From Pandoraea fibrosis (lineage in GTDB: Bacteria > Pseudomonadota > Gammaproteobacteria > Burkholderiales > Burkholderiaceae), in assembly GCF_000807775.2 (NCBI RefSeq), contig NZ_CP047385.1:496001-560000 (forward strand): a stretch of 64,000 nucleotides of DNA, given 5' to 3'. The position numbers and the translations under genes were made by a program. Shown here in pieces: positions 47,199-64,000 of the stretch. Position 1 is the first letter of the stretch; each line of letters opens with the position of its first letter. The notes under the pieces were generated by a model. It ran no database searches. It saw nothing but the letters and a program-made list of their open reading frames with translations, and was not told the origin of the DNA.

Positions 47199-47231
47199 GA
47201 TCGGATTCTTTTGATCTTTTTCAGGTGGTTT

Positions 47232-47639: not shown

Positions 47640-47656
47640 TCGAGGAGTTGCAAGTC

Positions 47657-47917: not shown

Positions 47918-47930
47918 TACCCCCTAAAAT
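47903..47930 (+). promoter_or_regulatory. Promoter for secB
   Basis: TTGCAA (47903-47908), 16 bases, TAAAAT (47925-47930). It overlaps the end of grxC. A hairpin CAGCCGCG-TGTCTG-CGCGGCTG at 47939-47960 lies in the leader. Confidence 0.5.
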
Positions 47931-47981
47931 AGTGCGCCCAGCCGCGTGTCTGCGCGGCTGTCTTATACCCAAGGAAACGAA

Positions 47982-48488: not shown

Positions 48489-48551
48489 GCGCTTGCGCTT
48501 GATCGACGTGACGACCGACGGGGTGTCGGGCGTCGCGTCGGGGCCTCCTTC

Positions 48552-49565: not shown

Positions 49566-49711
49566 GCGCGTCACCGCACGCTGCGCTGCTGATGCAACGC
49601 CAGACGCGCATGGCGTGCCGGCGATGCCTGGTGAGATCGCCGGGCGCCGATACCCCGTTTCTCCGGCGGCGGAGGTCCGTTGCCAACACTCGCCACAAGG
49701 GAGTCGAGCCC

Positions 49712-50242: not shown

Positions 50243-50694
50243 CCCTGTTGACGCCACGCTTCGAAGACCACCACAGCGACCGTATTCGACAAATTGAGGC
50301 TGCGATTGCCGGGACGCATCGGCAAACGCACGCGTTGCGTGGTGGCAAACGTGTCGAGCAATTCCGGCGCGAGCCCACGCGTCTCCGAGCCGAAGATGAA
50401 CCAGTCGCCCGGCATAAACGACAAGTCGCCAAAGGGACGCGAGCCCCGTGTCGTCAATGCGAACATGCGCGTGGGGTCGGGCGTTTCGGCGGCCATAAAC
50501 GCGTCCCAGTCCCGATGCACCTTCATCTGCGCGTACTCGTGATAGTCGAGGCCTGCGCGACGCATGCGTGCGTCGTCCAGTGGAAACCCAAGCGGTTCGA
50601 TCAGATGCAGACGTGCGCCCGTGTTGGCGCACAAGCGAATGACGTTGCCGGTGTTCGGCGGAATTTCAGGCGAAACGAGAACGACGTTGAACAT
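50224..50694 (-). CDS. trmL: tRNA (cytidine/uridine-2'-O-)-methyltransferase
   Basis: A 156-residue SPOUT-fold methyltransferase that modifies the wobble base of tRNA-Leu. Conserved stretches are [48 protein letters not shown] and the knot sequence [27 protein letters not shown]. It lies 16 bases after comF on the minus strand. Confidence 0.95.
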
Positions 50695-50710
50695 GGGTGT
50701 GGGGGCGGAG

Positions 50711-51607
50711 TTATGAGGAGGACGGCGTGCGCAAGACGACGGCCGCCAGTACATGTGTGGCGCCCGCATGTTTGAGCGCGGCGGCGGCAGCGTCGCAAGT
50801 CGCGCCGGTGGTCATGACGTCGTCGATCAGCACGATGCGGCGCCCGCAAACGTGATCGCTTGCGACGAACGCACCTTGCAGATTGCGTTTGCGCGCTTCG
50901 CGAGACAGACGCCGCTGGGCGGCAGTCGTCCGGTCACGCCGCAGCACATGGGCGCTGGCCGGCAAATTCGCACGGCGGGACGCTACCCGTGTCAGTTCCC
51001 AAGCCTGATTGAAGCCACGCGATGCGAGTCGCGAGGGCGCCAGCGGCACAGGGACCAGCAGCGGTGTGAACGGCGTCACGTCCGCGTGGGCGGTCAGCGC
51101 GTCGCCGAGACGTTCGCCGAATTCGCGCGCGAGTGGCAAGGCGCTATGGTATTTCAGACGAATCATCAGCGTATCGAGCGGTGCCACGTAGTCTGCGAGC
51201 GTCAGGGTTTGATCGAACGCGGGCCGGTGTCGCAGGCATTGTCCGCAGACGACGGTTGATTGGGTGCGGCAAATTGCCGCACCTTCGGCCTCGGGCGTCA
51301 TGGCGTCACGCGTCCGTGCGGCAGGCGAGGTCAATGGGGCGGCACATTGGCCGCAGCGCAGCGGCGCGTCGGCCCGGGCCGCGTCGAACGCTTGCGCGCA
51401 ATCGGCACAGACCTGCCGGGCCGCACGTCGATGGCAGATCGCGCAGTGATCCGGCAACGCCGTGCGCAGCAGTCCGCCAGCAAGCCTGACGAGCGTAGGA
51501 AAAGTGGCGCGAAGGATGGGCAAGGCGATAGCGGGTGCGAAGTGAGATGGCGGGCCGTGCGGCCACCGCCATCGAGGGGCGCTGGGCCGGTTGAGGTCAT
51601 AGCGCAT
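50711..51607 (-). CDS. comF: ComF-family phosphoribosyltransferase-like protein
   Basis: A 298-residue ComF homologue. The N-terminal part has a zinc ribbon, C-x2-C repeated in CAICHRRAARQVCADC, CGQCAAPL and CGQCLRHRP, interrupted by an about 30-residue insert. The C-terminal phosphoribosyltransferase domain has VPVPLAPSRLASRGFNQA and the PRPP motif IVLIDDVMTTGAT. ComF is required for DNA uptake in some competent bacteria. It is divergent from the BioC-like gene. Confidence 0.92.
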   Translation of the reverse strand: MRYDLNRPSAPRWRWPHGPPSHFAPAIALPILRATFPTLVRLAGGLLRTALPDHCAICHRRAARQVCADCAQAFDAARADAPLRCGQCAAPLTSPAARTRDAMTPEAEGAAICRTQSTVVCGQCLRHRPAFDQTLTLADYVAPLDTLMIRLKYHSALPLAREFGERLGDALTAHADVTPFTPLLVPVPLAPSRLASRGFNQAWELTRVASRRANLPASAHVLRRDRTTAAQRRLSREARKRNLQGAFVASDHVCGRRIVLIDDVMTTGATCDAAAAALKHAGATHVLAAVVLRTPSSS

Positions 51608-51670
51608 GGCGGTGCCCGATGCATTCGGGCAGCAGCGAGTATACTGCCGACTCGCCTTTTTGCCCGTCCC

Positions 51671-52591
51671 ATGAAGCCCTCTGCCGCTCCCCAAACACCG
51701 TCCTCAGCGTTCTCAGCCCGCTTTTTGCGCACCGCATTCGACCGCCGCGCGCCGAACTGGCACGAGGCCGATTTCCTGATGCGGGAGGTGGCGTCCCGTC
51801 TCGCGAGCCGGCTTGACTACATCAAGCTCAAGCCGAAACGCGTGCTCGACGTTGGCTGCGGTACCGGCGGCGACCTGCTGAGTTTCGGCGAGCGTTACCC
51901 CGACGCCTATCGCGTGGGCCTCGACGCCTCGTTCGCGATGGCCAAAGCGGCGGCGGCGGCCGGGGCGACGACCGGTTGGCGCCGGTTGTTGCGCACTGCG
52001 CCCCCCTACGGCGTGGTGCAGGCCGATTTCTCGACGCTTCCGTTTGCACCGCGCACGTTCGACCTGGTGTGGTCGAATCTCGCGCTGCACTGGTATCGCG
52101 AACCGCATCGTGTCATTCCCGAGTGGCATCGCGTGCTGAGCACTGACGGCCTGCTGATGTTTTCGGCCTATGGTCCCGACACGCTGCGCGAGTTGCGCAC
52201 GGCGTGGGCGGAGGTCGACGACGTTGCCCATGTGCTCGAACCGACGGACATGCACGATCTGGGCGACATGATGGTGGCGAGCGGCTTCGATACGCCGGTT
52301 ACGGATATGGAGCGACTGACGCTCACGTTCGAATCGCCGGACACGCTGTTGCGCGATGTGCGTCTGCTGGGCGTGAATCCGCTGCCGGAGCGGCGTAGCG
52401 GACTCACCGGGCGGGCGCGTCTGGCAGCCTTGCGCGCGGCGCTGGAGCGTCAGCGTGGCGCGGAGGGCACGATCGCGCTGACCTTCGAACTCGTCTACGG
52501 CCACGCCTGGAAAATTCCTGAAAAGACCGACGCGGCAGGTAACGCCGTCGTCCGCATTCAGGATATCGGACGCGGCGGCCGTCCCCGTTAA
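51671..52591 (+). CDS. BioC-like SAM-dependent methyltransferase
   Basis: A 306-residue class I methyltransferase. The SAM site is VLDVGCGTGGDLLSFGERYP, and FDLVWSNLALHWYREPHRVIPEWHRVLSTDGLLMFSAYGPDTLRELR matches the malonyl-ACP O-methyltransferase (BioC) group. In that role it would methylate malonyl-ACP to start biotin synthesis; no other bio gene is adjacent except birA far away. It is the last housekeeping gene before the biosynthetic cluster. Confidence 0.85.
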   Translation: MKPSAAPQTPSSAFSARFLRTAFDRRAPNWHEADFLMREVASRLASRLDYIKLKPKRVLDVGCGTGGDLLSFGERYPDAYRVGLDASFAMAKAAAAAGATTGWRRLLRTAPPYGVVQADFSTLPFAPRTFDLVWSNLALHWYREPHRVIPEWHRVLSTDGLLMFSAYGPDTLRELRTAWAEVDDVAHVLEPTDMHDLGDMMVASGFDTPVTDMERLTLTFESPDTLLRDVRLLGVNPLPERRSGLTGRARLAALRAALERQRGAEGTIALTFELVYGHAWKIPEKTDAAGNAVVRIQDIGRGGRPR

Positions 52592-52749
52592 GCGTCACCT
52601 GCGAACGCCGGCGCTCGCCGTCGCGTTCGACACGTTCTCGGGCGTTATTGCGCGCCTGTCTCGATCCGCGGTGCGGTGACGGGCGGATCGTTTCACACCG
52701 CCTCCTACCGCTGTCTGCCGCTTCCCAAAAGCCTCGCCGCATCCTGCGT

Positions 52750-52796
52750 CCTACACGACTATGCAGGTGTTCCGCGCTCGTCCGGTTCGCTTAAAT
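52750..52796 (+). promoter_or_regulatory. LuxR-box-like palindrome with matching -10 element
   Basis: CCTACACGACTATGCAGG (52750-52767) matches the lux-box pattern CT-N12-AG, with symmetric CCT-x-CA and TG-x-AGG half-sites. A box centred at -42.5 would place the start of transcription at about 52801, and TTAAAT (52791-52796) lies at the corresponding -10. The cluster starts at 52899. The remaining part of this 307-base gap shows nothing else. Confidence 0.6.
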
Positions 52797-52898
52797 GACG
52801 CTTCACGGCGTGCATGAGCGAAGACGTTTGCGGATCGCATTCACTTCACTGCACCACGCCATTGCGTCGCCTTCGGGCGGGACTTCGGGAGGTGGGCT

Positions 52899-53984
52899 GT
52901 GAGGCATGAGCACGAAACGTGGGTGGCACCGCCGCAGGCTGGGCCCGAAGCCTGCGAGAGCATGCGCGACGGATTGCCGTTGCGCGTCGGTGGGGCGTTC
53001 CTGCAACCGACGGCGCCGGTCTTCACTGCTATCGATGGCTTGTGTCCCGCCACGGTGCATCTCAAGCTGGAAGGACTGAATCCGGCAGGTTCCATCAAGC
53101 TCAAAACTGCGCTTCAACTGATCGAGGATCTGGAAGCGACGGGACGCATTTGCGCGAACACGCAGATCGTCGAATCGTCGTCCGGAAACCTCGGCGTGGC
53201 GTTGGCGATGGTCTGTGCGAATCGTGGCTATCGATTCACTTGCGTGACCGACCCCAATACGTCGCGTCAGGCCATCCGGGCCATGCAGGCGGCAGGTGCC
53301 CGTGTGGTTCGCGTTGAGCGTCGCGATTCGCAGGGCGGCTACCTCGGCACGCGCATCGAGTGGATTCGGGAGCAAGTAGCGCGTGATGCGCGATGGGTAT
53401 GGGTCAATCAATATGCCAGCCCGGGCAATTGGCGGGCGCACTACCGTTGGACAGCGCCTGAAATCTTCTCGGCCTATCCCGATGTCGGCCATCTGTTCGT
53501 CGGCGCAGGTACGACCGGCACCTTGATTGGGTGCTTGCGTTACGTGCGAGCGCATCGACTGCCAACGCGTGTCATCGCGGTCGATGCCGTCGGCTCGGTC
53601 ACGTTCGGCGGCTCGCCGGGTCCGCGACGTATACCTGGGCTGGGGACAAGCTGCCGGCCGGCGTTGTGTGAATCGCTGGATGCCGAGCCGCCTGACGCCA
53701 TCGTCCATGTCCCCGAAGCGGAAACGATGCGGATGTGCCGCCGTCTGGCCGCGCGAGGTCTTTTGGCGGGCGGGTCTACGGGGAGTGTGCTGCGTGCCGT
53801 ACAGATGTTGTCGGTGGATATTGCGGCCAGCGACACGGTGGTCGCCATTGCCCCGGACATGGGGGACAAGTATCTGGACACTCTTTACGACCCCGACTGG
53901 GCCGCCGCCTACGTCGACAACGGTTCCGACGTGGCTGGCGGAGCGCCTCACAACCTCGACACCGTGAGTTCCTCATTGCCATGA
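52899..53984 (+). CDS. sbnA: SbnA-like 2,3-diaminopropionate biosynthesis PLP enzyme
   Basis: A 361-residue cysteine-synthase-fold PLP enzyme. The Schiff-base lysine is K67 in LKLEGLNPAGSIKLKTA, the substrate loop is ESSSGNLGVALA and the cofactor phosphate loop is GAGTTGTL. SbnA-type enzymes join O-phosphoserine and glutamate to give N-(1-amino-1-carboxyl-2-ethyl)-glutamate (ACEGA). The GTG at 52899 follows GGGAGGTG. The gene overlaps the SbnB-like gene by four bases, and the pair is the usual L-2,3-diaminopropionate (L-Dap) module found in staphyloferrin B, viomycin and zwittermicin pathways. Confidence 0.88.
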   Translation: MRHEHETWVAPPQAGPEACESMRDGLPLRVGGAFLQPTAPVFTAIDGLCPATVHLKLEGLNPAGSIKLKTALQLIEDLEATGRICANTQIVESSSGNLGVALAMVCANRGYRFTCVTDPNTSRQAIRAMQAAGARVVRVERRDSQGGYLGTRIEWIREQVARDARWVWVNQYASPGNWRAHYRWTAPEIFSAYPDVGHLFVGAGTTGTLIGCLRYVRAHRLPTRVIAVDAVGSVTFGGSPGPRRIPGLGTSCRPALCESLDAEPPDAIVHVPEAETMRMCRRLAARGLLAGGSTGSVLRAVQMLSVDIAASDTVVAIAPDMGDKYLDTLYDPDWAAAYVDNGSDVAGGAPHNLDTVSSSLP

Positions 53985-55033
53985 ACGCTTTACCGATACC
54001 GCAATTTCGCGTGTTTACCGGCGAGCAGATTGACGCCGCCCTCGCGCAAGACAAGTCTGCTGTCCTCGATACGGTCGAGGCGGCATATCGCGCCCACAAC
54101 GCCGGGCGCACGGTGAATCCGGAAAGTCAGTTTCTCCGATTTCCCGATGGACAACGCAATCGCATCATCGCGTTGCCTGCGCACATTCGCGATCGCGATG
54201 GAGAAGGCGAGGGCGTGACGGGCATCAAGTGGATCTCAAGCTTTCCCGAAAACATCGAGCGGGGCATGCCTCGCGCATCGGCGGTGCTGATTCTGAATGA
54301 CCCGGTGACCGGCTATCCGATGGCGTGCATGGAAGCGAGCATCATCAGCGCGGCGCGCACGGCGGCGAGTGCGATCAGTGCATTGCGCTGCCTCGCGGGC
54401 AATGCGTTTGCCACGGGCGAAACATCGTCGAGCGGCTTGCGTGTGGCATTCGTCGGTGCGGGCGTTATCGCGCGTCATGTTGCCGAGTGTCTGCCACTCG
54501 CAACGCTGCCGATCAGCGAAGTGAGGGTGCACGATCTGCACCACGATTACGCCATGTCGCTCGCCACTCGCATCGGGATGCACCTCGCCTACGAGGCCCG
54601 CCCGGAGGCGTCACTCGAAGCCACGATTCGCGAGTCGGATGTCATCGTGCTTACCACCACGGCGGCATCACCATATCTCGACAATCCCGATTGGTTCTCG
54701 CATTGCCCGATCGTGCTGCACCTCTCGCTGCGCGACCTCGCGCCCGCAGTCGTTCTCGCATCCCACAACGTGGTGGATGACATCGACCACTGCCTGCGGG
54801 CCATGACGTCGCTGCATCTTACGGAAGCCGAGACCGGCCACCGGCGCTTCGTGACGACATCGCTGCCGCATCTGCTGTGTGGCGGCGAGCCACCGGTGCG
54901 CGACCGGCCAATCGTGTTTTCACCCTTCGGACTGGGCATTCTCGATATTGCCGTTGGACGCTGGGTCTACGACCGGCTGGCGGCGCAGCAAGCCCCGGTT
55001 CCCCGATTTTTCTACGATATGCAACGCGCATGA
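53981..55033 (+). CDS. sbnB: SbnB-like 2,3-diaminopropionate biosynthesis dehydrogenase
   Basis: A 350-residue protein of the ornithine cyclodeaminase / mu-crystallin fold. N-terminal substrate residues lie in GVTGIKWISSFPENIERGMPRASAVLILNDPVTGYPMACMEASIISAARTAA, and the NAD site is LRVAFVGAGVIARHVAECL. SbnB oxidises ACEGA and releases L-Dap plus 2-oxoglutarate. It overlaps both neighbours by four bases (ATGA), showing tight coupling with the SbnA-like gene and the PurA paralogue. Confidence 0.88.
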   Translation: MNALPIPQFRVFTGEQIDAALAQDKSAVLDTVEAAYRAHNAGRTVNPESQFLRFPDGQRNRIIALPAHIRDRDGEGEGVTGIKWISSFPENIERGMPRASAVLILNDPVTGYPMACMEASIISAARTAASAISALRCLAGNAFATGETSSSGLRVAFVGAGVIARHVAECLPLATLPISEVRVHDLHHDYAMSLATRIGMHLAYEARPEASLEATIRESDVIVLTTTAASPYLDNPDWFSHCPIVLHLSLRDLAPAVVLASHNVVDDIDHCLRAMTSLHLTEAETGHRRFVTTSLPHLLCGGEPPVRDRPIVFSPFGLGILDIAVGRWVYDRLAAQQAPVPRFFYDMQRA

Positions 55034-56499
55034 CCTCCGTATCTTCCAGCCCCTCGCTTCACCCCGCTCACCTCGCTTCGGATCGCGCAGAAGGTTTCGC
55101 CGACGTCCTCGTCGGCCTGCAATACGGCGACGAAGGCAAGGCGAAAATCATCGACGCGCTTGCGCCCGGTTATGACGTCATCGCCCGGTTCAATGGTGGG
55201 GCCAACGCGGGACACACCATCGACACCCCGTCCGGTCGCATTGCGCTCAAGCAATTGCCATCTGGCGTATTTCATCCACACGCAACGCTGTACATCGGGT
55301 CAGGGTGTGCCATCAATCCGTGGAAGCTGGTCGACGAGATCGAACAGTTGCGCGAGATGGGCGTTTCGCTCGAAGGCCGCTTGCGCATCAGCGCACGCGC
55401 GGCACTCGTGCAGCCGCACCATATCGCGATGGACCGACGTGGAAGCGGCACGATCGGCACCACGGGCAACGGCATCGGGCCGTGCTACGCGGATCGCGCG
55501 ATGCGCATACGCAACGAAACACGCGTCAACCTGATGCTCGGCGATCTGCTGACGAACGAGACGGACACCGTCGCCTCAATGCGAAATGTATTCACTCGCA
55601 TGATCAACGCCGAGGGTGGCACGTCCCCGTGGATCGCAGAGATGTCGGACATGTTCCTGAGTCTGCCGAGGGTCACGGAGACCTTGCGGGGTTACATCGA
55701 GTCGGATCGTGGATGGCTGACGGATCGAGTGCGGGGCGGTGCCAACGTGCTGTTCGAAGGCGCGCAGTCGGTGCTGCTCGATGTTGTCGACGGTAGCCAG
55801 CCGTTTGTGACGTCGAGCCACACCGTGCCGGCCTACGCGTATGTGGGGGGCGATCTGTCGCCGAAGTATCACCGTCGAACGATTGGTGTGGCGAAGGCCA
55901 TCATGTCGCGCGTCGGGCGAGGTCCGTTTCCTTCCGAGTTGGGAGGCGAGCGTTCGGCGCAGTACTGTCACGACGCGTCGCAGGCGAGCGTTGGTGCTGC
56001 GCATGAGCAGGTGCGCCATTCGCCGGATCAGCTATTGCGCTCCAGCGATCCTTTCGATGTCGGCACGGCGCTTCGTATGCTGACGGGCGAGTACGGCACA
56101 GGGACCGGCCGACCACGCCGGATCGGCATGCTGGACCTCGCGCAACTGCGAGACGTCGTCAAGGCGCACGGGGTGGACTGCGTCTACCTCAACAAAGTCG
56201 ACTGTCTGTCGCACTATTTTCATTCGGCGTATCAAGGCATACCGATGCGTGTCCATCGCGATGTATTGTCGGATCATGTCATGCCGGATGTGCTGATCTA
56301 TCCCGGATTGAACGAACGTTCGCTCGCGCTTGGCCGCGAGGGAACGCTCGATGCCGCGATGCATGGCTTCGTCGACTTCGTTGAGCGGCACATCGGTGCG
56401 CCGTTGGCCGGCATCGGACTTGGGCCGGAAAGGTCGAGTCTGATTTCGCTGACCGCGCATCAACTCGCGCCTGTTGCTGCGGCGTCGTCTCATGTCTGA
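55030..56499 (+). CDS. Divergent adenylosuccinate synthetase paralogue (PurA-like)
   Basis: A 489-residue protein clearly homologous to PurA, which joins IMP and aspartate using GTP. Catalytic positions are kept: D34 in GDEGK and H62 in GGANAGHT, the GTTG-x-GIGP loop, FEGAQ and TSS. But conserved positions differ from the housekeeping enzyme: YGDEGKAK instead of WGDEGKGK, GTTGNGIGP instead of GTTGRGIGP, TSSHT instead of TSSNT, LNKVD instead of LTKLD, and the aspartate loop is TGTGRPRR. A 20-residue N-terminal extension is present. It sits in the middle of the operon, coupled to both neighbours. It may act on a pathway intermediate or serve as a product-resistant enzyme. Confidence 0.85.
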   Translation: MTSVSSSPSLHPAHLASDRAEGFADVLVGLQYGDEGKAKIIDALAPGYDVIARFNGGANAGHTIDTPSGRIALKQLPSGVFHPHATLYIGSGCAINPWKLVDEIEQLREMGVSLEGRLRISARAALVQPHHIAMDRRGSGTIGTTGNGIGPCYADRAMRIRNETRVNLMLGDLLTNETDTVASMRNVFTRMINAEGGTSPWIAEMSDMFLSLPRVTETLRGYIESDRGWLTDRVRGGANVLFEGAQSVLLDVVDGSQPFVTSSHTVPAYAYVGGDLSPKYHRRTIGVAKAIMSRVGRGPFPSELGGERSAQYCHDASQASVGAAHEQVRHSPDQLLRSSDPFDVGTALRMLTGEYGTGTGRPRRIGMLDLAQLRDVVKAHGVDCVYLNKVDCLSHYFHSAYQGIPMRVHRDVLSDHVMPDVLIYPGLNERSLALGREGTLDAAMHGFVDFVERHIGAPLAGIGLGPERSSLISLTAHQLAPVAAASSHV

Positions 56500-57454
56500 C
56501 CCAAATCCGTCGAACGGTGAGAGGCGCCCGCTTGGCAGCGGAAGCGCGCCCGATCATGGGCAACGGCCGTGGCAGGACGTTGCGGTCGTCACTCGCCGTG
56601 CGGCGGAGACACCGTTCCCGCCATTGTTACCGGATCAGTTGTTCTTCAACGTGGCACTGATGCCCTATGCCACGCACCCGCTGGTTTGTGCGCTTGGACA
56701 GGCAGCCCGGCAGCAATTGAGCGCGTTACGGTTAGCGGACTACCTGAACAAGACGGAGCGCGTGGAATTGCACATCGTCAATCGGGCCGTCGAAGCGATA
56801 CTCAATATGCCGGGTATCGCCTCGGTCAGCCGCGACGATCTGTTGGCGATCTACACGGACGAGGGTTTTCACACGTGGATGATGGAACGCTTCCGCAGGC
56901 GTCTGCTGTGCCATACGGGGTATTCGCTGACGCAAGGTGCGTCATTGAGCGTTGCGCGCGTGCTTGCATTGTGCGAGACGGTGCCGGCGACACATCGGGA
57001 GATGGCCATCGTGGCAGCAGCGTCGGTGACCGAGACGCTCATTACCGGCACGCTGCGTCGGGCGGGCGCCTGCGACGACGTGTATCCACCCGTGCGCGAA
57101 CTGCTGGCCGATCATGCCGCGGACGAGATGCGACATCAGGCGGCATTTGTCCGATTTGTGAGCGAGTGGGTGCCGTTGCTGTCGCCCGGTGAACGTGCGT
57201 CGCTCAATGCCCTCCTGCCCGATCTCATGACGGCGTTTCTTGCCCCCGAATTGCCCGTGTGGCGAGACCACTTGTGCTTGATCGGGCTCGATGAAGCCGA
57301 CGCCGACCTTGTGATCCGGGAGAGTATCGATCCGCTGCAAGTGGGTGTGCAGATGATGGAGGCGGCACTTGTGCCACGACGTCTGTTCGAGCGATTGGGC
57401 ATGACATGTGCCGAACGCTTCGCGCAGCAGGCGAGCCGCTGGCGTCCTCCCTGA
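56492..57454 (+). CDS. AurF-type diiron N-oxygenase
   Basis: A 320-residue helical protein with the complete diiron ligand set of AurF-like N-oxygenases: E89 (in NKTERVELHIVN), E124 and H127 (DEGFH), E181 (SVTETLITG), and H208, E212, H215 (DHAADEMRH). Spacings agree with AurF (E-x34-E-x2-H and H-x3-E-x2-H). AurF family members oxidise amines to hydroxylamines, nitroso or nitro groups. The ATG at 56492 lies inside the end of the PurA-like gene (eight-base overlap). The flavin reductase at the operon end may supply electrons. Confidence 0.85.
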   Translation: MSDPNPSNGERRPLGSGSAPDHGQRPWQDVAVVTRRAAETPFPPLLPDQLFFNVALMPYATHPLVCALGQAARQQLSALRLADYLNKTERVELHIVNRAVEAILNMPGIASVSRDDLLAIYTDEGFHTWMMERFRRRLLCHTGYSLTQGASLSVARVLALCETVPATHREMAIVAAASVTETLITGTLRRAGACDDVYPPVRELLADHAADEMRHQAAFVRFVSEWVPLLSPGERASLNALLPDLMTAFLAPELPVWRDHLCLIGLDEADADLVIRESIDPLQVGVQMMEAALVPRRLFERLGMTCAERFAQQASRWRPP

Positions 57455-57575
57455 GTGTGCGTCGCCCATCGTGCGCCGAGGGCGACGGCAGGTGTGCATG
57501 CCGGCAAATCTCAAGCGCGACAGACGGCGTGGTGCTGTCTGCGAACCATCATTGAGAAACGACCAGGAGAGATGT

Positions 57576-58622
57576 GTGACTTGTCCCTGGCTAGCCCCCG
57601 ATCTGACCATGAGTGCAGCGGACTATCGTGCCCTGCTCGACGCGGCCCTGTCGTTCAAGCGCCGATATCCGCAACACACGGAAGGGGCGTTGCGCGGTCG
57701 AACGATCTACTTCCTCTTCTATAACGCCTCACTGCGCACGCGCAGCAGCTTCCAAACCGGACTGTCGAGAATGGGCGGGCACGCCATTGTGCTCGATCCT
57801 CAGCACGGGATTTATACGCCCGCATTGCCGGAGGCAGAGATTCCCTATTCGACGGAGCGTGTCGCCGACGTGGCGAGGGTGCTCTCGTCCTATGGCGACG
57901 CGATTGCGATTCGCATGTACGGCGAGCCGGCCGGTTGGGTGTACGGCGCCGCGCATCGCCATCTCGAGGCGTTTTCGCAATGGAGCCAGGTGCCGGTGAT
58001 CAACATGGAGTGCGATCGCTTTCACCCGTGTCAGGCGCTCGCCGACGTGATGACAATGCGTGAGCGACTCGGAGGCCTCACCGGGCGTCGGCTATGCATC
58101 AGTTGGGCCTATTCCGGAAGTTGGCACAAGCCCGTGGCAGTGCCGCAAAGTCTGCTGCTCGCGGCCGTGAAGACGGGGATGGACGTCACGCTCGCGCATC
58201 CGGCGTCGTTGGGTCTCGATCCGCAGGTCATGCAAGCCGCCACGCAGTTTGCCGAGCAGACGGGCGCACGTATCCGCGTGACGCACGATTTGCGCGATGG
58301 TGTGACCGATGCGCACGCCGTCTATGCCAAGTCGTGGTGCAGTCTTGGGCTCTTGCCGACGCGGCACGGCGACGCGGTCGACGAGATGGCCATGCGGGAG
58401 ACTTTTGAGCGCCATCGGGATTGGCGCGTCGACGCCGACGTGATGCGTCTTGCCGCGCCGGACGCCGGGTATTTGCATTGCCTGCCCGCAGACCGGGGGC
58501 AGGAGGTGACGGACGATGTCATCGATGGTCCGTCGTCGTGGGTCTTTCAGCAAGCCGCCAACCGGCTTCATGCGCAGAACGCCGTGATGGCACATTTGCT
58601 GAACCCGGGGTGCCTCGCGTGA
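57576..58622 (+). CDS. Carbamoyltransferase of the N-acetylornithine type
   Basis: A 348-residue member of the aspartate/ornithine carbamoyltransferase family. The carbamoyl-phosphate loop is S-x-RTR at residues 52-56 (NASLRTRSSF). The second half, PVINMECDRFHPCQALADVMTMRE, LCISWAYSGSWHKPVAVPQSLLLAA, YAKSWCSL and LHCLPADRGQEVTDDVIDGPSS, is closest to N-acetylornithine carbamoyltransferases. In this cluster the acceptor is more likely an L-Dap derivative, giving a ureido group. The GTG at 57576 follows CCAGGAGAG. A 121-base gap separates it from the AurF-like gene. Confidence 0.83.
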   Translation: MTCPWLAPDLTMSAADYRALLDAALSFKRRYPQHTEGALRGRTIYFLFYNASLRTRSSFQTGLSRMGGHAIVLDPQHGIYTPALPEAEIPYSTERVADVARVLSSYGDAIAIRMYGEPAGWVYGAAHRHLEAFSQWSQVPVINMECDRFHPCQALADVMTMRERLGGLTGRRLCISWAYSGSWHKPVAVPQSLLLAAVKTGMDVTLAHPASLGLDPQVMQAATQFAEQTGARIRVTHDLRDGVTDAHAVYAKSWCSLGLLPTRHGDAVDEMAMRETFERHRDWRVDADVMRLAAPDAGYLHCLPADRGQEVTDDVIDGPSSWVFQQAANRLHAQNAVMAHLLNPGCLA

Positions 58623-59881
58623 CGTCGTGCTTCTCGTATCGCTATGCGTGTGTGAGATGCGCGACACCGCAGTCCTGGGGCGCAATTCGGTACCGATGCC
58701 ATGTGTGCGGACAGAATTTGGGCATCCAACGCAAACCGAAGGGGGCGGTGCCGACAGCGGGCGACATCGTGAGCATGTTTCGCGGACGAGGCATGTGGCG
58801 ATACCGTGCGCTCCTGCCCGTCGAGGCTCGCTGGGGGAGTCGACTGGTCGTCGGCGACACGCCGATGATCGATTGTGGCGACGATGGCGGAGTGAATCTC
58901 TGGGTGAAGGACGAGGCGCGCAATCCCAGCGGGTCGCTCAAGGATCGCGCCACCGAAGTGGTGCTGGCCGTCGCGAAGCGGGCCGGATGCTTGAATACGG
59001 TGGCGGCATCAACAGGCAATGCCGGTGCATCGTTGGCGTGTATTGCGGCCTCGCAAGGCATGGCGGCGACCGTTGTAGTCCCGGCCAGCACGCCGTTTGT
59101 CAAACTTGCCCAGATTCGTGCTTATGGCGCCAGGGTTTGCGAGGTCGACGGCACTTACGACGACGCGTTCGAGATCGCCGAGCGCATGGCCGATGAGGCC
59201 GGTGTGTGCTGCCGCAATACGGGGATCAACCCCTTCACGCGCGAAGGCAAGAAGACGTGCGCGTTCGAAATGGCCGAGGCGTTCGATTGGCGTGTGCCGG
59301 ATTGGGTGGTGGTGCCAACGGGAGACGGCAACATTCTCTCCGGGATTGCGGCGGGATTCCTCGATCTGTACGCGTTGGGGATCACGTCAGCGGTGCCACG
59401 GCTACTCGCCGCGCAGGCGGATAGTTCAAACAGCATCACGCGGGACTGGCAAGCGGACGACGAAGGGACGGCTCTGCCGCAGTCGCCCACACTTGTCAGC
59501 CCCGAGACCGTGGCCGACAGCTTGTCGGTGAGCCGTCCACGCGATCATTTCGCGGCGCTTCACGCGTTGCGCGCCACGCGCGGTGTTTGCGTCGCGCTCG
59601 ATGACGCGCGCATTCTCGCCGCGTCGCAAACGCTGGCGCAGCGCTTCGGCTTGTGGTTCGAGCCATCGACGGCCGCCGGGTATGCCGCATTGCATGCGTG
59701 TCTTGCCACCGGCCAGATTCAGCCCGGGGCGCGAGTCGTGTTGCTGGGTACGGGCACAGGGCTGAAAGCCCCACACGACTTTGACCGCGTGACACCGGGA
59801 CACTTGCCGGATGAGGCGGGCGTCATGCCTCGTGGTATTCCCGAAGATCGCCGTTATTTCCGTGAGGAGGGACAGGCGTGA
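58619..59881 (+). CDS. Threonine-synthase-like PLP enzyme with zinc ribbon
   Basis: A 420-residue fold-type II PLP enzyme. The N terminus has a zinc ribbon with C11-x2-C14 and C27-x2-C30 (CVRC...CHVC), found in one class of threonine synthases. K108 in NPSGSLKDRAT binds PLP, the substrate loop is ASTGNAGASLA, and the phosphate loop is PTGDGNILSG. Threonine synthase acts on O-phosphohomoserine by gamma-elimination and water addition; here it may perform a related replacement on another phosphorylated or activated amino acid. A GTG start overlaps the carbamoyltransferase stop (GTGA). Confidence 0.83.
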   Translation: MTSCFSYRYACVRCATPQSWGAIRYRCHVCGQNLGIQRKPKGAVPTAGDIVSMFRGRGMWRYRALLPVEARWGSRLVVGDTPMIDCGDDGGVNLWVKDEARNPSGSLKDRATEVVLAVAKRAGCLNTVAASTGNAGASLACIAASQGMAATVVVPASTPFVKLAQIRAYGARVCEVDGTYDDAFEIAERMADEAGVCCRNTGINPFTREGKKTCAFEMAEAFDWRVPDWVVVPTGDGNILSGIAAGFLDLYALGITSAVPRLLAAQADSSNSITRDWQADDEGTALPQSPTLVSPETVADSLSVSRPRDHFAALHALRATRGVCVALDDARILAASQTLAQRFGLWFEPSTAAGYAALHACLATGQIQPGARVVLLGTGTGLKAPHDFDRVTPGHLPDEAGVMPRGIPEDRRYFREEGQA

Positions 59882-60834
59882 CGCGGCAACGCATCATCGT
59901 GCTTGGCGCTGGGGTCAGCGGACTGACGACCGCCACGACGATGGCAATGGCCGGATGCGACGTCACCATCCGCGCGGCGGAAGGACCTGCGCAGACGACG
60001 TCGGCCCTCGCCGCTGCCATCTGGCATCCGTTCTATCAGGCGCCTGACTTCGTTTATCTCGAACGCGCCCGGCAGACTTACACGACGATGCATCGCTTGT
60101 CTGCCGACACGTCGTCGGGCGTTCTCATGCGAACGCTCACCGAGTACTTTCAACAGGACGCCGGAATGCCTTGGTGGGCGGAGTGCGCGAGCGACCTCAA
60201 GAGACTGCCGGACGCGGAGGTTCCGTCGCGCTTTGCCTGTGCGTATCGCATGTCTGTTCCCGTCGCCGACACGGCAGCTTACCTTCGCTATCTGATGCAT
60301 ATGTTCTTTGAGCTTGGCGGACAGTTCTTGCCGCAACGTATCGATGATCCGGCCTCACTCCTCGACGATGCCGACTACGTGGTGAATTGCTGCGGTTACG
60401 GCAGCCGGCAGTTCGGCGACGGCGAGTTGTCGTTGTCGCGGGCGATCGTGTTGCGTGCCCGGCGCGCCGCTGCTGTACGGGGCTGCTTCATCGATGACGC
60501 TGATCCGGCAGCGCCCACTTACATCGTGGAGCGAAGCCACGACATCGTCCTCGGCGGCACCGCCGACCCGGAACTGACATCGACCGTCATTGGGGTGCGA
60601 CAAATCGAGGACATCGTGCGCCGTTGCACGCAACTCTGCGAAGGGGTGGCTGCGTTGCACGTGATCGATGCTCGCACCGGATTTCGGCCAATGCGTCGTG
60701 TCGCCCGCGTCGCATGCGACGAGCGGCACTCTCGGCTGATTCATAACTACGGTCACGGTGGCGGGGGTTTCACGCTGTCATGGGGCTGCGCCAACGACGT
60801 GTTGCGTCTGGCGGGCATGACACCGGCCAATTAA
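59878..60834 (+). CDS. D-amino-acid-oxidase-like FAD enzyme
   Basis: A 318-residue flavoprotein. The FAD site is IIVLGAGVSGLTTATTMAMAG, followed by TTSALAAAIWHPFY, and the C terminus has the family signature GFRPMRRVARVACDE plus LIHNYGHGGGGFTLSWGCA. The family oxidises D-amino acids or related secondary amines to imines with release of peroxide. A GTG start follows GAGGAGGGA and overlaps the previous stop (GTGA). It may act late on a pathway amine. Confidence 0.83.
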   Translation: MTRQRIIVLGAGVSGLTTATTMAMAGCDVTIRAAEGPAQTTSALAAAIWHPFYQAPDFVYLERARQTYTTMHRLSADTSSGVLMRTLTEYFQQDAGMPWWAECASDLKRLPDAEVPSRFACAYRMSVPVADTAAYLRYLMHMFFELGGQFLPQRIDDPASLLDDADYVVNCCGYGSRQFGDGELSLSRAIVLRARRAAAVRGCFIDDADPAAPTYIVERSHDIVLGGTADPELTSTVIGVRQIEDIVRRCTQLCEGVAALHVIDARTGFRPMRRVARVACDERHSRLIHNYGHGGGGFTLSWGCANDVLRLAGMTPAN

Positions 60835-60887
60835 CGTGTGGCGTGCCGGCAGCACGACTGCCGGGCATCGCCCCTCTGGGATGCGAT

Positions 60888-61532
60888 ATGGAACTGGACC
60901 CGGCAACGCTCGACGAAGCCAGCATCTACAACTTCATGATGAGTACGATCCTGCCGCGTCCCATCGCGTGGGTAAGTACGGTGGATGAGGACGGCCGTCC
61001 GAATCTCGCACCGTATGCGTACTTCATGGGGGTGTGTTGTGTGCCGATGACGGTATTGTTCTGCCCCGTCGTGCCGCCCGCGCCGAAGCAAAAGAAGGAC
61101 ACGTTGCGCAACGTCGAAGCGGTCCCCGAATTCGTCGTGAACGTGGCGAGCGTGTCGTGTATCGACGCTGTGAATCTCTCGGCAGCGCCGCTGCCCGCCG
61201 GCGAGTCGGAGTTCGACCTGACGGGCGTGACACCGGTGCCGTCATCGCGCGTGCGGCCGCCGCGTGTGCTCGAGGCCGCTGTGGCTTACGAGTGCCGGGT
61301 ACGCGACATCATCGAGATTAGTGCTGCGCCGGGGGGCGGATGGGTCGTGCTTGGCACGGTGCTCGCGGCACATGTCGACGACGCATTGCTCGACCCCGTC
61401 ACGCATCAGGTGGATTTGCAGGGGCTGAGGCCGGTTGGGCGTTTGGGGGGAGGGGCGTTTGTGAATGCCGCGAGCGATACCTTCACGTTGACGCGTTACA
61501 AGACGCTCGCAGATCTGGCCGCGCGCAAGTGA
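60888..61532 (+). CDS. FMN-binding flavin reductase-like protein
   Basis: A 214-residue protein of the flavin reductase-like, FMN-binding family: ASIYNFMMSTILPRPIAWVSTVDEDGRPNLAPYAYFMGVCCVPMTVLFC and KDTLRNVEAVPEFVVNVAS are characteristic. The ATG at 60888 is the first start after the previous stop. It may reduce flavin for the DAO-like or AurF-type enzyme, or act as an oxygenase component. The last 50 bases overlap the convergent luxR gene. Confidence 0.85.
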   Translation: MELDPATLDEASIYNFMMSTILPRPIAWVSTVDEDGRPNLAPYAYFMGVCCVPMTVLFCPVVPPAPKQKKDTLRNVEAVPEFVVNVASVSCIDAVNLSAAPLPAGESEFDLTGVTPVPSSRVRPPRVLEAAVAYECRVRDIIEISAAPGGGWVVLGTVLAAHVDDALLDPVTHQVDLQGLRPVGRLGGGAFVNAASDTFTLTRYKTLADLAARK

Positions 61533-62310
61533 CGACGTGCGGACCCGCCGAGGCGAAGTCGTCGAGCAACCCGTAATCGCTGGCGAGCTTCGCCGCGCGG
61601 TGACGGCTCGATACGTCGAACTTGCGCATGACGCTGCGCAAATGGAAGACGACGCCATGTTCGGAGATGGTGAGGATGCGACCGATCTCCCACGAGGTCT
61701 TGCCACGCGCGACCCAGCGCAGGCACTCGCGCTCGCGTGGCGTCAATACGGGGGCATCGTGACGCACGGCGTCGCGCTGCACGATGCGCCAAACGACCTC
61801 GTGCACATGCATGGCCAGCACCGCGCCGCCATGCTGTATCCACGCGTGTGCGCCGGGCGCGCGCGGGTGTCGGGGCGGATGACGTGGCGACGACAGACTC
61901 AAGGTCCCTGACGCGCCAGACGGCGTGAACACCGGATACGTGATGCCGGAGCGCAATCCTGCGGCGCGCTGGTCGCGAAGCAGTTGCCGGGCTTCGGGGG
62001 ACGCGTACAACGACGGTATCCATTCAACGGGCGTGAGTCGCTGGCATGCGAGCGAGAGCACGGGGTCGATGCTCGCGTAATGTTGCGCGTCGTAACGTTT
62101 CTGCCATGCCTCGGGAAAATTGCCGAGTTGCGGCGTCGCGAGCTTTCCGCCCGGCAACGGGAAATGCCCTCGATAGTTGAAATAGCGCTGCCTGAGAGCG
62201 ACGCACAACGACTGCAACAGAGTGCGCAAGGCATCGAAGTCGGTGACGGAGTGCAAGGCGCTCAGACCGTCGGCAAACGAGCGGGGAGTGACGCAACGCG
62301 TGGCACGCAT
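61483..62310 (-). CDS. LuxR-family AHL-responsive regulator (solo)
   Basis: A 275-residue LuxR-type protein. The N-terminal autoinducer domain keeps the conserved pocket: W-x3-Y (WQKRY), D-P 13 residues later (SIDP), W 28 residues after the first W (PVEW) and the later Gly (GLRSG). The C-terminal HTH is VLTPRERECLRWVARGKTSWEIGRILTISEHGVVFHLRSVMRKF. No luxI is seen in the window, so it is a solo here. It is convergent with the biosynthetic operon and the likely activator of the lux-box-like promoter at its head. The ATG at 62310 was chosen as the first residue before conserved sequence; its ribosome site is weak. Confidence 0.88.
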   Translation of the reverse strand: MRATRCVTPRSFADGLSALHSVTDFDALRTLLQSLCVALRQRYFNYRGHFPLPGGKLATPQLGNFPEAWQKRYDAQHYASIDPVLSLACQRLTPVEWIPSLYASPEARQLLRDQRAAGLRSGITYPVFTPSGASGTLSLSSPRHPPRHPRAPGAHAWIQHGGAVLAMHVHEVVWRIVQRDAVRHDAPVLTPRERECLRWVARGKTSWEIGRILTISEHGVVFHLRSVMRKFDVSSRHRAAKLASDYGLLDDFASAGPHVVTCARPDLRASCNAST

Positions 62311-62760
62311 GACATATCGATGTAGGGAACATGTTTCGCTTGTAGCATGCGTGATATCGACGCGCGCACCGACGCTCGCCGAGGGGACGCGCGCAGGGGA
62401 TGAGAAGGTCCTTCGCAACGTCGTCGTAGCGCGTGGTCGCCGGGCGCGACATAACGTCGCATGCGACATCCCGCACAGCGTCTAGTGTTGATGGATATCG
62501 GACGAATCCCGCATCGCAGCGAAGGTGGCGTGGGGTGTGGCGCGCCGTGCGATTCGAGGCAGGCGCGTTTGACGATGGGAAGCTTCGTTCCCCGAGGCAG
62601 GGGTTTCGGGTATTCAGGACACCGCAACGAGTCGTGTCTTGTTGCGATGTGTCAAACCGGCGACGCATAGGGAGTATCCCGTAGACGCGCGCCTGTGGAG
62701 ATTTCCGGCTAGGGGAATAACCGGATTTCCCTTTTGCATCAATGAGTTCAGGAGGATGCT
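62311..62760. other. Gap upstream of luxR, no gene seen
   Basis: About 450 bases with no convincing protein gene on either strand. Open frames here lack ribosome sites and family motifs. It should contain the luxR promoter on the minus strand. Confidence 0.5.
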
Positions 62761-62817
62761 ATGACGCGTCAAATACTCGGTATCAATGTTGTCGCTTCGA
62801 GAATGCGCGTTCTATAA
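62761..62817 (+). CDS. Possible 18-residue leader peptide or remnant
   Basis: ATG at 62761 is preceded by a strong ribosome site, TCAGGAGGATGCT, and reads MTRQILGINVVASRMRVL before TAA. The stop overlaps a TATAAT box. It may be a short leader, an orphan fragment of a lost gene, or chance. Confidence 0.3.
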   Translation: MTRQILGINVVASRMRVL

Positions 62818-62818
62818 T
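62789..62818 (+). promoter_or_regulatory. Promoter for the DUF2244-cox genes
   Basis: TTGTCG (62789-62794), 18 bases, TATAAT (62813-62818), about 80 bases before the DUF2244 gene. Confidence 0.5.
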
Positions 62819-62900
62819 GCGGCAGTTTGTCGCGGCCCGGACGCAACTGGTTCCCGGCCGTCGGACATGAAAGACCCAAAATGCCCCACGGGTGACGGCG

Positions 62901-63374
62901 ATGCTCGCAGCCTCTTCCTCCGACGTCGGATCGGTGACGAAGGAATGGACGCACAAGCGCAACTGCGCGATATCGCCGCGCCAGTTTGTCCTGTTCTACC
63001 TGTCGTTGGCCGCCGTGTCACTGGGTGTTGCCTTGATTGCGGCGTGGCGCGGTGGGTGGTTGGTCTTGCCGTTCACAGGCCTGGACTTGCTCGTGGTGGG
63101 CGTTGCGTTCGTCATTCATGCCCGGCATGCCACAGATTACGAGGTCATTCGGTTGTCGCCCGTGAGCCTTGTGGTCGAGCAACGTTCAGCACAGAGGTTG
63201 ACGCAGTACGAGTTCAATCCCCGCTGGGTACGCATCGACATCGAAACGCCGCCACGCACGCGCATTGTCTTGCGCTCGGGTAGCCGCTCGGTCACCGTCG
63301 GTGCCTATCTTGCGCCGCATCGCCGCGAAACGTTTGCGCGCGAGCTGCGCCGTTGTCTTGCCCAAGAGGCCTGA
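62901..63374 (+). CDS. DUF2244 membrane protein
   Basis: A 157-residue protein with two hydrophobic segments (FVLFYLSLAAVSLGVALIAAW and LVLPFTGLDLLVVGVAFVIHA) and a C-terminal soluble part (YEVIRLSPVSLVVEQRSAQRLTQYEFNPRWVRIDIE). This is the DUF2244 family, often encoded just before cytochrome c oxidase subunits. Its function is unknown. I chose the ATG at 62901; a GTG at 62892 is also possible. Confidence 0.8.
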   Translation: MLAASSSDVGSVTKEWTHKRNCAISPRQFVLFYLSLAAVSLGVALIAAWRGGWLVLPFTGLDLLVVGVAFVIHARHATDYEVIRLSPVSLVVEQRSAQRLTQYEFNPRWVRIDIETPPRTRIVLRSGSRSVTVGAYLAPHRRETFARELRRCLAQEA

Positions 63375-63415
63375 GAGATGGAGACGATCTCGGGCGACCG
63401 CCAGGGAGGATTTGG

Positions 63416-64000
63416 ATGGTAATTTTGGGTAAGGAAGCTATGAAAAAAACGAAACATGCCTTGGCGGCTTTCCTTGCGGGCGCCTCACTGCTCGCCGTCG
63501 CTCCGGCAATGGCGGCGGTCACGGATATGCCGGGGGGGCCGGCCGTCAACGAACTCAACTTCCAGCCGCCGGTCACGAAACTTGCGGAAGAGCTTCACAG
63601 CCTTCACACCATGATGCTGATCATCTGTCTGGTGATCTTCATCGGTGTGTTCGGTGTGATGTTCTATTCGATTTTCAAACACCGCAAATCGAAGGGCCAT
63701 CAACCCGCGAATTTCCATGAAAGCACCACGGTCGAGGTGATCTGGACGGTCGTACCGTTCATCATCGTGATTCTGATGGCGCTGCCCGCCACGAAAACCG
63801 TGGTGGCGATGAAGGACACGACCAACGCCGACATCACGATCAAGGTGACCGGCTACCAGTGGAAGTGGGGCTACGACTACCTGAAGGGCGAAGGCGAGGG
63901 CATCAAGTTCCTCTCTACGCTGAGCACGCCGCGCAGCCAGATCGACGGCCAGGAGGCGAAGAGCAACACGTATCTGCAGGAAGTCGACAACCCGATGGTC
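63416..64000 (+). CDS. coxB: Cytochrome c oxidase subunit II (partial)
   Basis: The gene runs off the window end; 195 codons are visible. A signal peptide (about residues 9-33, AVAPAMA) is followed by two membrane helices, MLIICLVIFIGVFGVMFYSIF and VEVIWTVVPFIIVILMALPATKTVVAM, and the start of the cupredoxin domain with TGYQWKWGYDYL. The copper site would lie beyond the window. CAGGGAGGA precedes the ATG at 63416; the in-frame ATG at 63440 is also possible. Confidence 0.93.
   Translation, partial: MVILGKEAMKKTKHALAAFLAGASLLAVAPAMAAVTDMPGGPAVNELNFQPPVTKLAEELHSLHTMMLIICLVIFIGVFGVMFYSIFKHRKSKGHQPANFHESTTVEVIWTVVPFIIVILMALPATKTVVAMKDTTNADITIKVTGYQWKWGYDYLKGEGEGIKFLSTLSTPRSQIDGQEAKSNTYLQEVDNPMV

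What the first reader, a model, noticed from the sequence alone, without database searches (positions are those of the whole stretch)
52899..61532. Eight-gene operon that looks like an undescribed diaminopropionate-based biosynthetic pathway
Genes overlap or abut (ATGA, ATGA, eight-base overlap, 121-base gap, GTGA, GTGA, 53-base gap) and encode L-Dap synthesis (SbnA-like, SbnB-like), a PurA paralogue, an AurF-type N-oxygenase, a carbamoyltransferase, a threonine-synthase-like enzyme, a DAO-like flavoenzyme and a flavin reductase. L-Dap modules are established in siderophore and antibiotic pathways. Combining them with a PurA paralogue and an AurF enzyme, without any carrier protein, adenylation domain or dedicated exporter, does not match a pathway I know. 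A free amino-acid antimetabolite is the simplest inference.
Basis: partly seen in the sequence, partly recalled or inferred. Interest (0 to 1): 0.92.

Follow-up and report, generated by a model that had tools for sequence, protein, structure and literature searches.

The report
Quorum-linked diaminopropionate operon of Pandoraea
Most Pandoraea bacteria examined carry an eight-gene unit, tied to a cell-signalling regulator, that probably makes a small unusual amino acid not yet described, and one of its enzymes is a heavily remodelled copy of a basic purine-synthesis enzyme.

Summary
Eight co-directional, overlapping or closely spaced genes (52899-61532, +) encode SbnA, SbnB, a PurA-like protein, an AurF-type diiron oxygenase, a transcarbamylase, a threonine-synthase-like PLP enzyme, a DAO-type flavoenzyme and a flavin reductase. 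The genus is Pandoraea. Gene order, flanks included, is identical in 20 of 20 operons compared; all eight genes are under purifying selection. In three of those four, bioC is followed directly by DUF2244-coxB: operon and luxR3 behave as one module. (2) A conserved lux-box-like site precedes sbnA. (3) The PurA paralogue belongs to a clade seen only in Burkholderiaceae here, with IMP, GTP and catalytic residues intact, but a 36-residue insertion and substitutions on the aspartate side. (4) Its sister clade sits in a separate uptake- or detoxification-like locus. I infer an N-oxygenated, carbamoylated L-Dap-type aspartate mimic with PurA1 as a self-protecting adenylosuccinate synthetase. A biosynthetic role for PurA1 is nearly as likely. 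No product, transcript or activity is known.

The parts
52749..52768 (+). lux-box-like site TCCTACACGACTATGCAGGT (CCTA-N10-CAGG)
   Evidence: CCTA-N10-CAGG upstream of sbnA in 19 of 20 operons by exact pattern (background of the looser CCTR-N10-YAGG 0.07 per kb, 0.029 expected in 400 bases); the 20th (L059) lacks the exact pattern but has a related dyad at that place. Degenerate pattern found exactly once in the 5.59 Mb genome, six more sites at 3 mismatches, control 1. Dyad only 5 of 10 pairs here, 7 of 10 in some relatives.
52791..52796 (+). possible -10 element TTAAAT, 22 bases after the box
   Evidence: 22 bases after the box in 19 of 19 operons with the exact box; L059 has TCTAAT 21 bases after its box (sequence); promoter status is inference, the sigma-70 scan did not report it
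52899..53984 (+). SbnA-type N-(2-amino-2-carboxyethyl)-glutamate synthase (L-Dap step 1)
   Evidence: TIGR03945 374.2 bits, cut-off 349.95
53981..55033 (+). SbnB-type dehydrogenase (L-Dap step 2)
   Evidence: TIGR03944 364.7 bits, cut-off 326.9
55030..56499 (+). PurA paralogue (PurA1), remodelled adenylosuccinate-synthetase fold
   Evidence: PF00709 327.7 bits but below the NCBIfam purA cut-offs; residue and insertion analysis; model and fold search
56492..57454 (+). AurF-type diiron N-oxygenase
   Evidence: PF11583 73.8 bits; eight candidate ligand positions (seven ligands, one of two neighbouring Glu undecided) invariant in 20 of 20 operons
57576..58622 (+). transcarbamylase of the N-acetylornithine/ornithine type; probable L-Dap or N-hydroxy-Dap carbamoyltransferase (substrate inferred)
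   Evidence: PF02729 and PF00185; nearest solved relatives are N-acetylornithine transcarbamylases; 283.3 bits against cut-off 288 for that family
58619..59881 (+). threonine-synthase-like fold-type II PLP enzyme
   Evidence: PF00291; PRK08197 245.7 bits, cut-off 303; threonine synthases nearest in the PDB
59878..60834 (+). DAO/D-aspartate-oxidase-type flavoenzyme
   Evidence: PF01266 110.1 bits; nearest D-aspartate and D-amino-acid oxidases
60888..61532 (+). flavin reductase (NTA-monooxygenase component B type)
   Evidence: PF01613 77.4 bits (on the longer ORF 60780-61532); nearest 3bpk
61483..62469 (-). LuxR-type regulator, the published Pandoraea 'luxR3 solo', convergent; a shorter start near 62310 is likely (inference)
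   Evidence: PF03472 and PF00196; location next to cox genes as in PMC6691176; same 28 of 32 genomes as the operon; six AHL-contact-type residues 20 of 20

Best explanation
A single genetic module (eight-gene operon plus luxR3) makes a small, soluble, L-Dap-derived amino acid, probably in response to N-acyl-homoserine lactones. Steps by family knowledge: SbnA joins O-phospho-L-serine and L-glutamate; SbnB oxidises the adduct to L-Dap. Inferred: the AurF-type enzyme, with the flavin reductase as electron source, oxygenates an amine of L-Dap; the transcarbamylase carbamoylates it, giving a beta-ureido- or 3-(N-hydroxyureido)-alanine-type compound; the ThrC-like and DAO-like enzymes tailor it in a way I cannot assign. 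Such a compound would resemble alanosine and hadacidin (CH2-N(OH)-X side chains), which act on adenylosuccinate synthesis as aspartate analogues (recalled). I therefore commit to PurA1 as an adenylosuccinate synthetase with a rebuilt amino-acid pocket that protects the producer. Probabilities: dedicated L-Dap metabolite operon linked to luxR3, about 0.85; N-oxygenated and carbamoylated product, about 0.5; PurA1 as self-protection, about 0.4. Shown by sequence: gene set, order, co-occurrence, empty site, conserved box, PurA remodelling. Not shown: expression, any reaction, any product.
For: SbnA and SbnB meet curated cut-offs. Order with flanks conserved in 20 of 20 operons compared; PurA1, AurF and luxR3 in the same 28 of 32 genus genomes. 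In 3 of the 4 genomes without them, bioC is followed directly by DUF2244-COX2. lux-box-like site upstream in 19 of 20, a related dyad in the 20th. LuxR six AHL-type residues and AurF ligand-type residues 20 of 20. Purifying selection on all eight genes. PurA1 keeps D13, K16, N38, H41, T129, R143, Q224, T239, R303, R305, K331, D333 (E. coli numbering) in 27 of 27; 37 of 37 ordinary AdSS have them too, except K331 (36 of 37). It has R131N, T300G and a segment of 56 residues instead of 20-28 just before the aspartate loop, 27 of 27. A housekeeping AdSS is kept beside it in the window's genome. The sister clade PurA2 lies in an AraC-RidA-PurA2-PPOX-MFS locus without any gene of this pathway, 10 of 10 loci read, which suits protection better than an intermediate step of this pathway. 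L-Dap transcarbamylases are known from zwittermicin and viomycin clusters (PMC4581275, passages).
Against: The PurA1/PurA2 stem is very long (1.74 substitutions per site, support 0.71) and other positions invariant in 37 of 37 AdSS changed too (W11, R147, Y235, G253), which is more than simple inhibitor insensitivity needs. K140, which I recall as essential, is R in PurA1 and L or H in PurA2, though 4 of the 37 AdSS also have R and one Q. The ThrC-like and DAO-like enzymes have no place in the simplest scheme. No exporter. The order of carbamoylation and oxygenation, and whether the amine is alpha or beta, are guesses. The box is only a weak dyad in the window (5 of 10), and related species share sequence anyway. 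The four operon-less genomes may be one or two early lineages, so the co-occurrence may represent few events. luxR evolves faster than the operon (dN/dS 0.225).
Confidence: 0.45

Rival explanations
1. PurA1 is a biosynthetic ligase. It uses GTP and an IMP-like acceptor with the pathway's own amino acid in place of aspartate (a nucleotide-amino-acid conjugate), or uses aspartate to bring in a nitrogen on an N-hydroxylated or ureido intermediate, after which the DAO-type enzyme cleaves the succinyl part.
For: Deep divergence and a 36-residue insertion next to the amino-acid loop, helical in the model; T300G and R131N on the amino-acid side with the acceptor-side residues intact; PurA-like enzymes are biosynthetic in formycin (PMC8724604, one passage) and ToyH/TubE are described as acting in adenylosuccinate synthesis (PMC12648386, one passage); a FAD enzyme cleaves a coupled amino acid in a known hydrazine pathway (Spb39, recalled).
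Against: No adenylosuccinate-lyase-like gene in the operon; the sister PurA2 occurs without any gene of this pathway in 10 of 10 loci read; no direct evidence of N-N or nucleotide chemistry.
Confidence: 0.37
2. Metallophore or signal: the N-oxygenated Dap product chelates metal or is a diffusible signal like valdiazen, and PurA1 has an unrelated role.
For: AurF-type enzymes occur in the quorum-sensing-related ham pathway (PMC5878181, passages); SbnA/SbnB are siderophore enzymes (recalled); luxR3 linkage.
Against: No NRPS, siderophore synthetase, TonB receptor or exporter in the operon; pandorabactin and ham-type clusters are reported for Pandoraea.
Confidence: 0.1
3. A primary-metabolic or catabolic operon rather than a specialised-metabolite one.
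For: Present in 28 of 32 genus genomes and at one fixed site in the 20 compared.
Against: Absent with luxR3 from 4 of 32 genomes, with an intact empty site in 3; L-Dap synthesis plus AurF is typical of specialised metabolism (recalled); no transporter in the operon.
Confidence: 0.08

Closest known systems
L-alanosine clusters (ala/aln, Streptomyces alanosinicus)
   Same: L-Dap precursor and its N-hydroxylation (review PMC11705231, passages); free amino-acid product that acts on adenylosuccinate synthesis (recalled)
   Different: alanosine has an acyl-CoA-dehydrogenase-like hydroxylase, a cupin-AraC protein and in some clusters CreD/CreE homologues and a carrier-protein route (recalled); none of these domains is in this operon. 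Here AurF, transcarbamylase, ThrC-like, DAO and PurA genes take part
Zwittermicin / viomycin L-Dap to beta-ureidoalanine module
   Same: L-Dap transcarbamylase (PMC4581275, passages); the SbnA/SbnB part recalled
   Different: those feed NRPS lines (recalled); here no NRPS, and an AurF enzyme and PurA paralogue are added
Fragin/valdiazen ham cluster
   Same: AurF-type N-oxygenase in a quorum-related Burkholderiaceae operon; ham-like operons also occur in Pandoraea (PMC5878181, passages)
   Different: no HamA, HamD or HamE type gene in the operon; a second AurF-family gene, seen in 21 of 32 genus genomes, is only 23-25% identical to this one
Second-copy PurA enzymes of nucleoside antibiotic clusters (formycin, toyocamycin/tubercidin)
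   Same: PurA-type step inside a biosynthetic pathway (passages)
   Different: those are purine or nucleoside pathways; this operon has no other purine gene, and its PurA clade has its own insertion
Pandoraea luxR3 solo (PMC6691176)
   Same: it is that gene by position next to cox genes (passages)
   Different: the passages read there do not mention the operon; I did not read the whole paper

Membership tests
SbnA/SbnB L-Dap synthesis module | both proteins above curated equivalog cut-offs and adjacent | tested here: met
   374.2 vs 349.95 and 364.7 vs 326.9 bits; 4-base overlap
Adenylosuccinate synthetase (PurA) | fold and Pfam family | tested here: met
   PF00709 327.7 bits; all 43 PDB matches at E<=0.001 are adenylosuccinate synthetases or PurZ/PurZ0/DgsS relatives
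Adenylosuccinate synthetase (PurA) | NCBI equivalog cut-off | tested here: not met
   302.7 vs 402 (PRK01117) and 263.5 vs 395.55 (TIGR00184)
Adenylosuccinate synthetase (PurA) | catalytic, IMP and GTP residues | tested here: met
   12 named positions kept in 27 of 27 PurA1 (roles of residues recalled)
Adenylosuccinate synthetase (PurA) | aspartate-side loop of normal length and residues | tested here: not met
   56 vs 20-28 residues before the loop; T300G and R131N 27 of 27
AurF diiron N-oxygenase | diiron ligand residues | tested here: met
   aligned with AurF 3chh, candidate ligand positions invariant in 20 of 20 (ligand list recalled)
AurF diiron N-oxygenase | 4-aminobenzoate N-oxygenase equivalog | tested here: not met
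   39.7 vs 620 bits
N-acetylornithine / ornithine carbamoyltransferase | curated cut-offs | tested here: not met
   283.3 vs 288 (narrow) and 247.4 vs 306 bits
L-Dap transcarbamylase (DPTCase) | carbamoylates L-Dap | not testable with these tools
   no DPTCase sequence fetched; nearest solved are AOTCases
Threonine synthase | curated cut-offs | tested here: not met
   245.7 vs 303 and 159.4 vs 167.1 bits
Alanosine-type cluster | carrier protein, AlnG-type hydroxylase, cupin-AraC AlnA, CreD/CreE | tested here: not met
   no such Pfam domains in the eight proteins
Fragin/valdiazen ham cluster | HamD NRPS, HamA, HamE with HamC | tested here: not met
   no such Pfam domains in the operon
LuxR solo | autoinducer-binding plus HTH domains and the six conserved AHL-type residues | tested here: met
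   residue list recalled
LuxR solo | no adjacent luxI | not tested
   stated in PMC6691176 (passage); no LuxI search was made here

The most novel reading that the evidence does not exclude
The PurA1/PurA2 clade is a new branch of GTP-dependent ligases that keeps the nucleotide and GTP sites but accepts a different amino acid (here an N-oxygenated, carbamoylated L-Dap) or makes an N-N or amidine-type bond with aspartate, within a quorum-controlled, carrier-free pathway to a new natural product class. The second locus would be the matching uptake and disposal system of neighbours.
Probability: 0.35. Interest if true: 0.85.

Novelty: new variant of a known kind. Interest (0 to 1): 0.62.

Why it matters
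Pandoraea are emerging cystic-fibrosis-associated bacteria whose natural products were uncharacterized until the pandorabactins of 2025 (PMC12144892). A genus-wide operon that is present or absent together with a LuxR solo gives that orphan regulator a concrete target candidate and predicts a new small metabolite. The remodelled PurA clade either points to the target of the metabolite (purine synthesis) or is a new kind of ligase; both are directly testable with purified proteins and gene removals.

Tried and rejected
Considered and rejected: a siderophore or NRPS product (no such domains); a plain shared purA copy (clade-specific insertion and substitutions); a PurZ-type enzyme (PurZ model 95.5 bits vs cut-off 300); membership in alanosine or ham clusters. 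AurF relatives on plasmids (6 records) led, in the three I opened, to asnB-diiron oxygenase loci of Streptomyces, not to this gene set. The Burkholderia multivorans plasmid PurA is a separate copy without pathway genes in the 13 kb read. Plasmid searches with the transcarbamylase, DAO and ThrC-like proteins gave only relatives under 60% identity, whose contexts I did not open. Rfam search of 45000-64000 gave nothing. The scans of 52400-63000 found 1 promoter-like site (shuffles 1.7) and 3 terminator-like sites (shuffles 7.8), none useful. Wider sampling for the PurA clade at order, class and phylum level found only the window's own genome (1 of 349, 1 of 369, 1 of 398; E limit 1e-68; the sets overlap in part); other phyla were not sampled apart from the plasmid collection. 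The AurF scan of genome contigs returned 19 loci, 18 Pandoraea and one Tropicibacter match over 34 residues that I did not follow; it used patterns from a single sequence and reaches close relatives only.

Rows dropped before counts: L050 and L070 (motif search failed), so PurA1 is 27 of the 28 available; six Burkholderia-type PurA2 missed by the first motif were added; mis-sorted some PurA2 as PurA1 and is superseded; the regex count missed 12 sequences, and the alignment-based count (all 74) is the one used. The 37 AdSS are 8 fetched one by one and 29 from the 30 best-scoring loci of 60 genomes, so they lean to typical AdSS. Of 13 non-Pandoraea genomes with a PurA2-type match I read the neighbourhood of 8; of the 6 Pandoraea genomes with PurA2 only the window's own; of 102 plasmid records the table showed 30.
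Full report
What is there. The eight genes are real and as described. SbnA and SbnB meet their curated equivalog cut-offs, so L-Dap synthesis is the firmest functional call. Five of the other six are clear members of their superfamilies but fall below the cut-offs of the named enzymes tested (PurA, ornithine and N-acetylornithine carbamoyltransferase, threonine synthase, 4-aminobenzoate N-oxygenase, ThiO and D-amino-acid dehydrogenase), which is what diverged, dedicated enzymes look like; the flavin reductase matched no NCBIfam model. The transcarbamylase misses the N-acetylornithine cut-off narrowly (283.3 vs 288).

Where it is. A pattern-limited scan of 84,980 species genomes with the AurF protein found 19 loci, 18 of them Pandoraea and one a 34-residue match. 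The window's own genome is one 5.59 Mb contig. In 18 of 18 Pandoraea loci, in the most divergent operon (G028, PurA 55% identical over its match) and in the window the order is comF, bioC, the eight genes, luxR (opposite strand), DUF2244, COX2: 20 of 20. In L021-L023 and G028 an extra NHL-repeat gene lies between the flavin reductase and luxR (4 of 20 operons). The eight genes show median dN/dS of 0.066-0.134 (18 pairs each, synonymous differences 0.53-0.62 per site, so near saturation; bioC 0.051 and luxR 0.225 for comparison).

One module with luxR3. PurA1 (28 of 32, matches above 530 bits), AurF (28 of 32) and this LuxR (28 of 32) occur in exactly the same genus genomes; G017, G023, G025 and G030 have none at the limits used. 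In G030, G023 and G025 bioC is followed directly by DUF2244 and COX2, so operon plus luxR3 are missing together from one site. G017, a 1.2 Mb genome, keeps bioC, but DUF2244 and COX2 were not found in the 5.9 kb read behind it. The LuxR sits next to DUF2244 and coxB, which identifies it as the 'luxR3 solo' of PMC6691176 (passages); that paper and the LuxR-solo review PMC10134790 (passages) do not mention the operon in what I read. It keeps six residues that I recall as the AHL-contact set, 20 of 20.

A regulatory site. Between bioC and sbnA much of the sequence is not conserved, but a block of about 60 bases is. It holds CCTA-N10-CAGG in 19 of 20 operons (the window and the 18 loci), and 22 bases further TTAAAT in the same 19. 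The 20th, divergent operon (G028) lacks the exact pattern; the same place reads ACCTACAAGACCTTGTAGTG with TCTAAT 21 bases on. The degenerate pattern is found exactly once in the own genome, with six more sites at 3 mismatches against one for the reversed control. Against: the dyad is weak in the window (5 of 10 pairs; 458 of 63,980 20-mers in the window reach 7 of 10), and the sigma-70 scan did not report this promoter. So this is a conserved lux-box-like element, not a proven LuxR3 site.

The PurA paralogue. The window's genome has three PurA-family genes: housekeeping, PurA1 here, and PurA2 elsewhere. Over 349 family genomes, 41 have a PurA1/2-type match: 28 Pandoraea and 13 others. Wider samples gave none but the window's own. 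In a tree with 37 ordinary AdSS, PurA1 (27) and PurA2 (10) are sister clades (supports 0.996 and 0.934); their joint stem is long (1.74) with support 0.71. Twelve catalytic, IMP and GTP positions are kept, but R131 is N in 37 of 37 and T300 is G in 36 of 37 (one PurA2 has V), and G17, G225, Y235 and T271 are changed in all 37. K140 is R, L or H, and K49 varies. A segment that is 20-28 residues in 37 of 37 AdSS is 56 in 27 of 27 PurA1 and 10 of 10 PurA2, immediately before the aspartate loop. AlphaFold (mean pLDDT 77.8, 15 sequences, all of this clade) makes it helical with block pLDDT 84-94; the model is poor at 56-61, 139-157 and 258-264, which include nucleotide-site loops, so it does not bear on ligand binding. 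The nearest folds are AdSS. The residue roles are recalled; PDB titles for K16, R143 and R303 mutants fit them. So the nucleotide side is intact in sequence and the amino-acid side rebuilt. This fits insensitivity to an aspartate mimic, or a new amino-acid substrate; sequence alone does not decide.

The second locus. None holds genes of the Dap operon within the 16-21 kb read. The transporter resembles aromatic-acid/H+ symporters (281.6 bits, below cut-off 418.55) and the PPOX protein belongs to PF12900. This looks like an inducible uptake and disposal or protection locus (inference). A PurA2-type gene was seen in 6 of 32 Pandoraea genomes, all of which also have PurA1; only the window's was read in context.

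Mechanism. By family knowledge: L-Dap from O-phosphoserine and glutamate. Likely: diiron oxygenation of an amine fed by the flavin reductase, and carbamoylation (L-Dap transcarbamylases exist). Guess: the final product as an aspartate mimic of the alanosine/hadacidin kind. Unassigned: the ThrC-like PLP enzyme and the DAO-type oxidase, which aligns through the C-terminal glycine-rich motif with D-aspartate and D-amino-acid oxidases. Two readings of PurA1, protection and biosynthesis, remain nearly even.

Known or not. The rows listed by paper searches (open-licence PMC only) showed no description of this operon; subscription papers and MIBiG could not be searched, and the alanosine cluster paper was not held. 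Formycin and toyocamycin/tubercidin show that PurA-type steps can be biosynthetic, and a Hypoxylon cluster with an AdSS homologue was noted in a resistance-guided study (PMC12616698, passages). Each enzyme family is known; the combination, its tie to luxR3 and the PurA clade are not described in what I could read. I rate it a new variant of a known kind (carrier-free amino-acid antimetabolite-type operon).

Noticed in passing
window genome G000:C1:2646000-2662000 (L004) and L054-L058, L060-L063: Second PurA-paralogue locus: divergent alpha/beta hydrolase, AraC, RidA, PurA2, PPOX-family protein, aromatic-acid-type MFS transporter; same order in 10 of 10 loci read across Burkholderiaceae, one on a Caballeronia plasmid.
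   Followed up: partly
L021:15063-15917, L022, L023, L059: A ninth gene, an NHL-repeat beta-propeller protein, between the flavin reductase and luxR3 in 4 of 20 operons, including the most divergent one.
   Followed up: partly
window 61483-62469 (-): The luxR ORF overlaps the flavin reductase 3' end convergently and is probably too long as listed; stops inside the matched stretch in several relatives suggest a later start, perhaps near 62310.
   Followed up: no
G001-G031: 21 of 32 Pandoraea genomes hold a second AurF-family gene at 23-25% identity elsewhere, possibly HamC of ham-like clusters (PMC5878181).
   Followed up: no
L103-L105 (Streptomyces plasmids): asnB, a diiron oxygenase (31-32% to the window AurF) and an MFS transporter, with PqqD-family and nucleotidyltransferase genes nearby, form a recurring small locus in three Streptomyces plasmids.
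   Followed up: no
window 49592-50242 (+): Macro-domain protein (PF01661) beside a SpoU-family methylase in an otherwise housekeeping-looking stretch.
   Followed up: no
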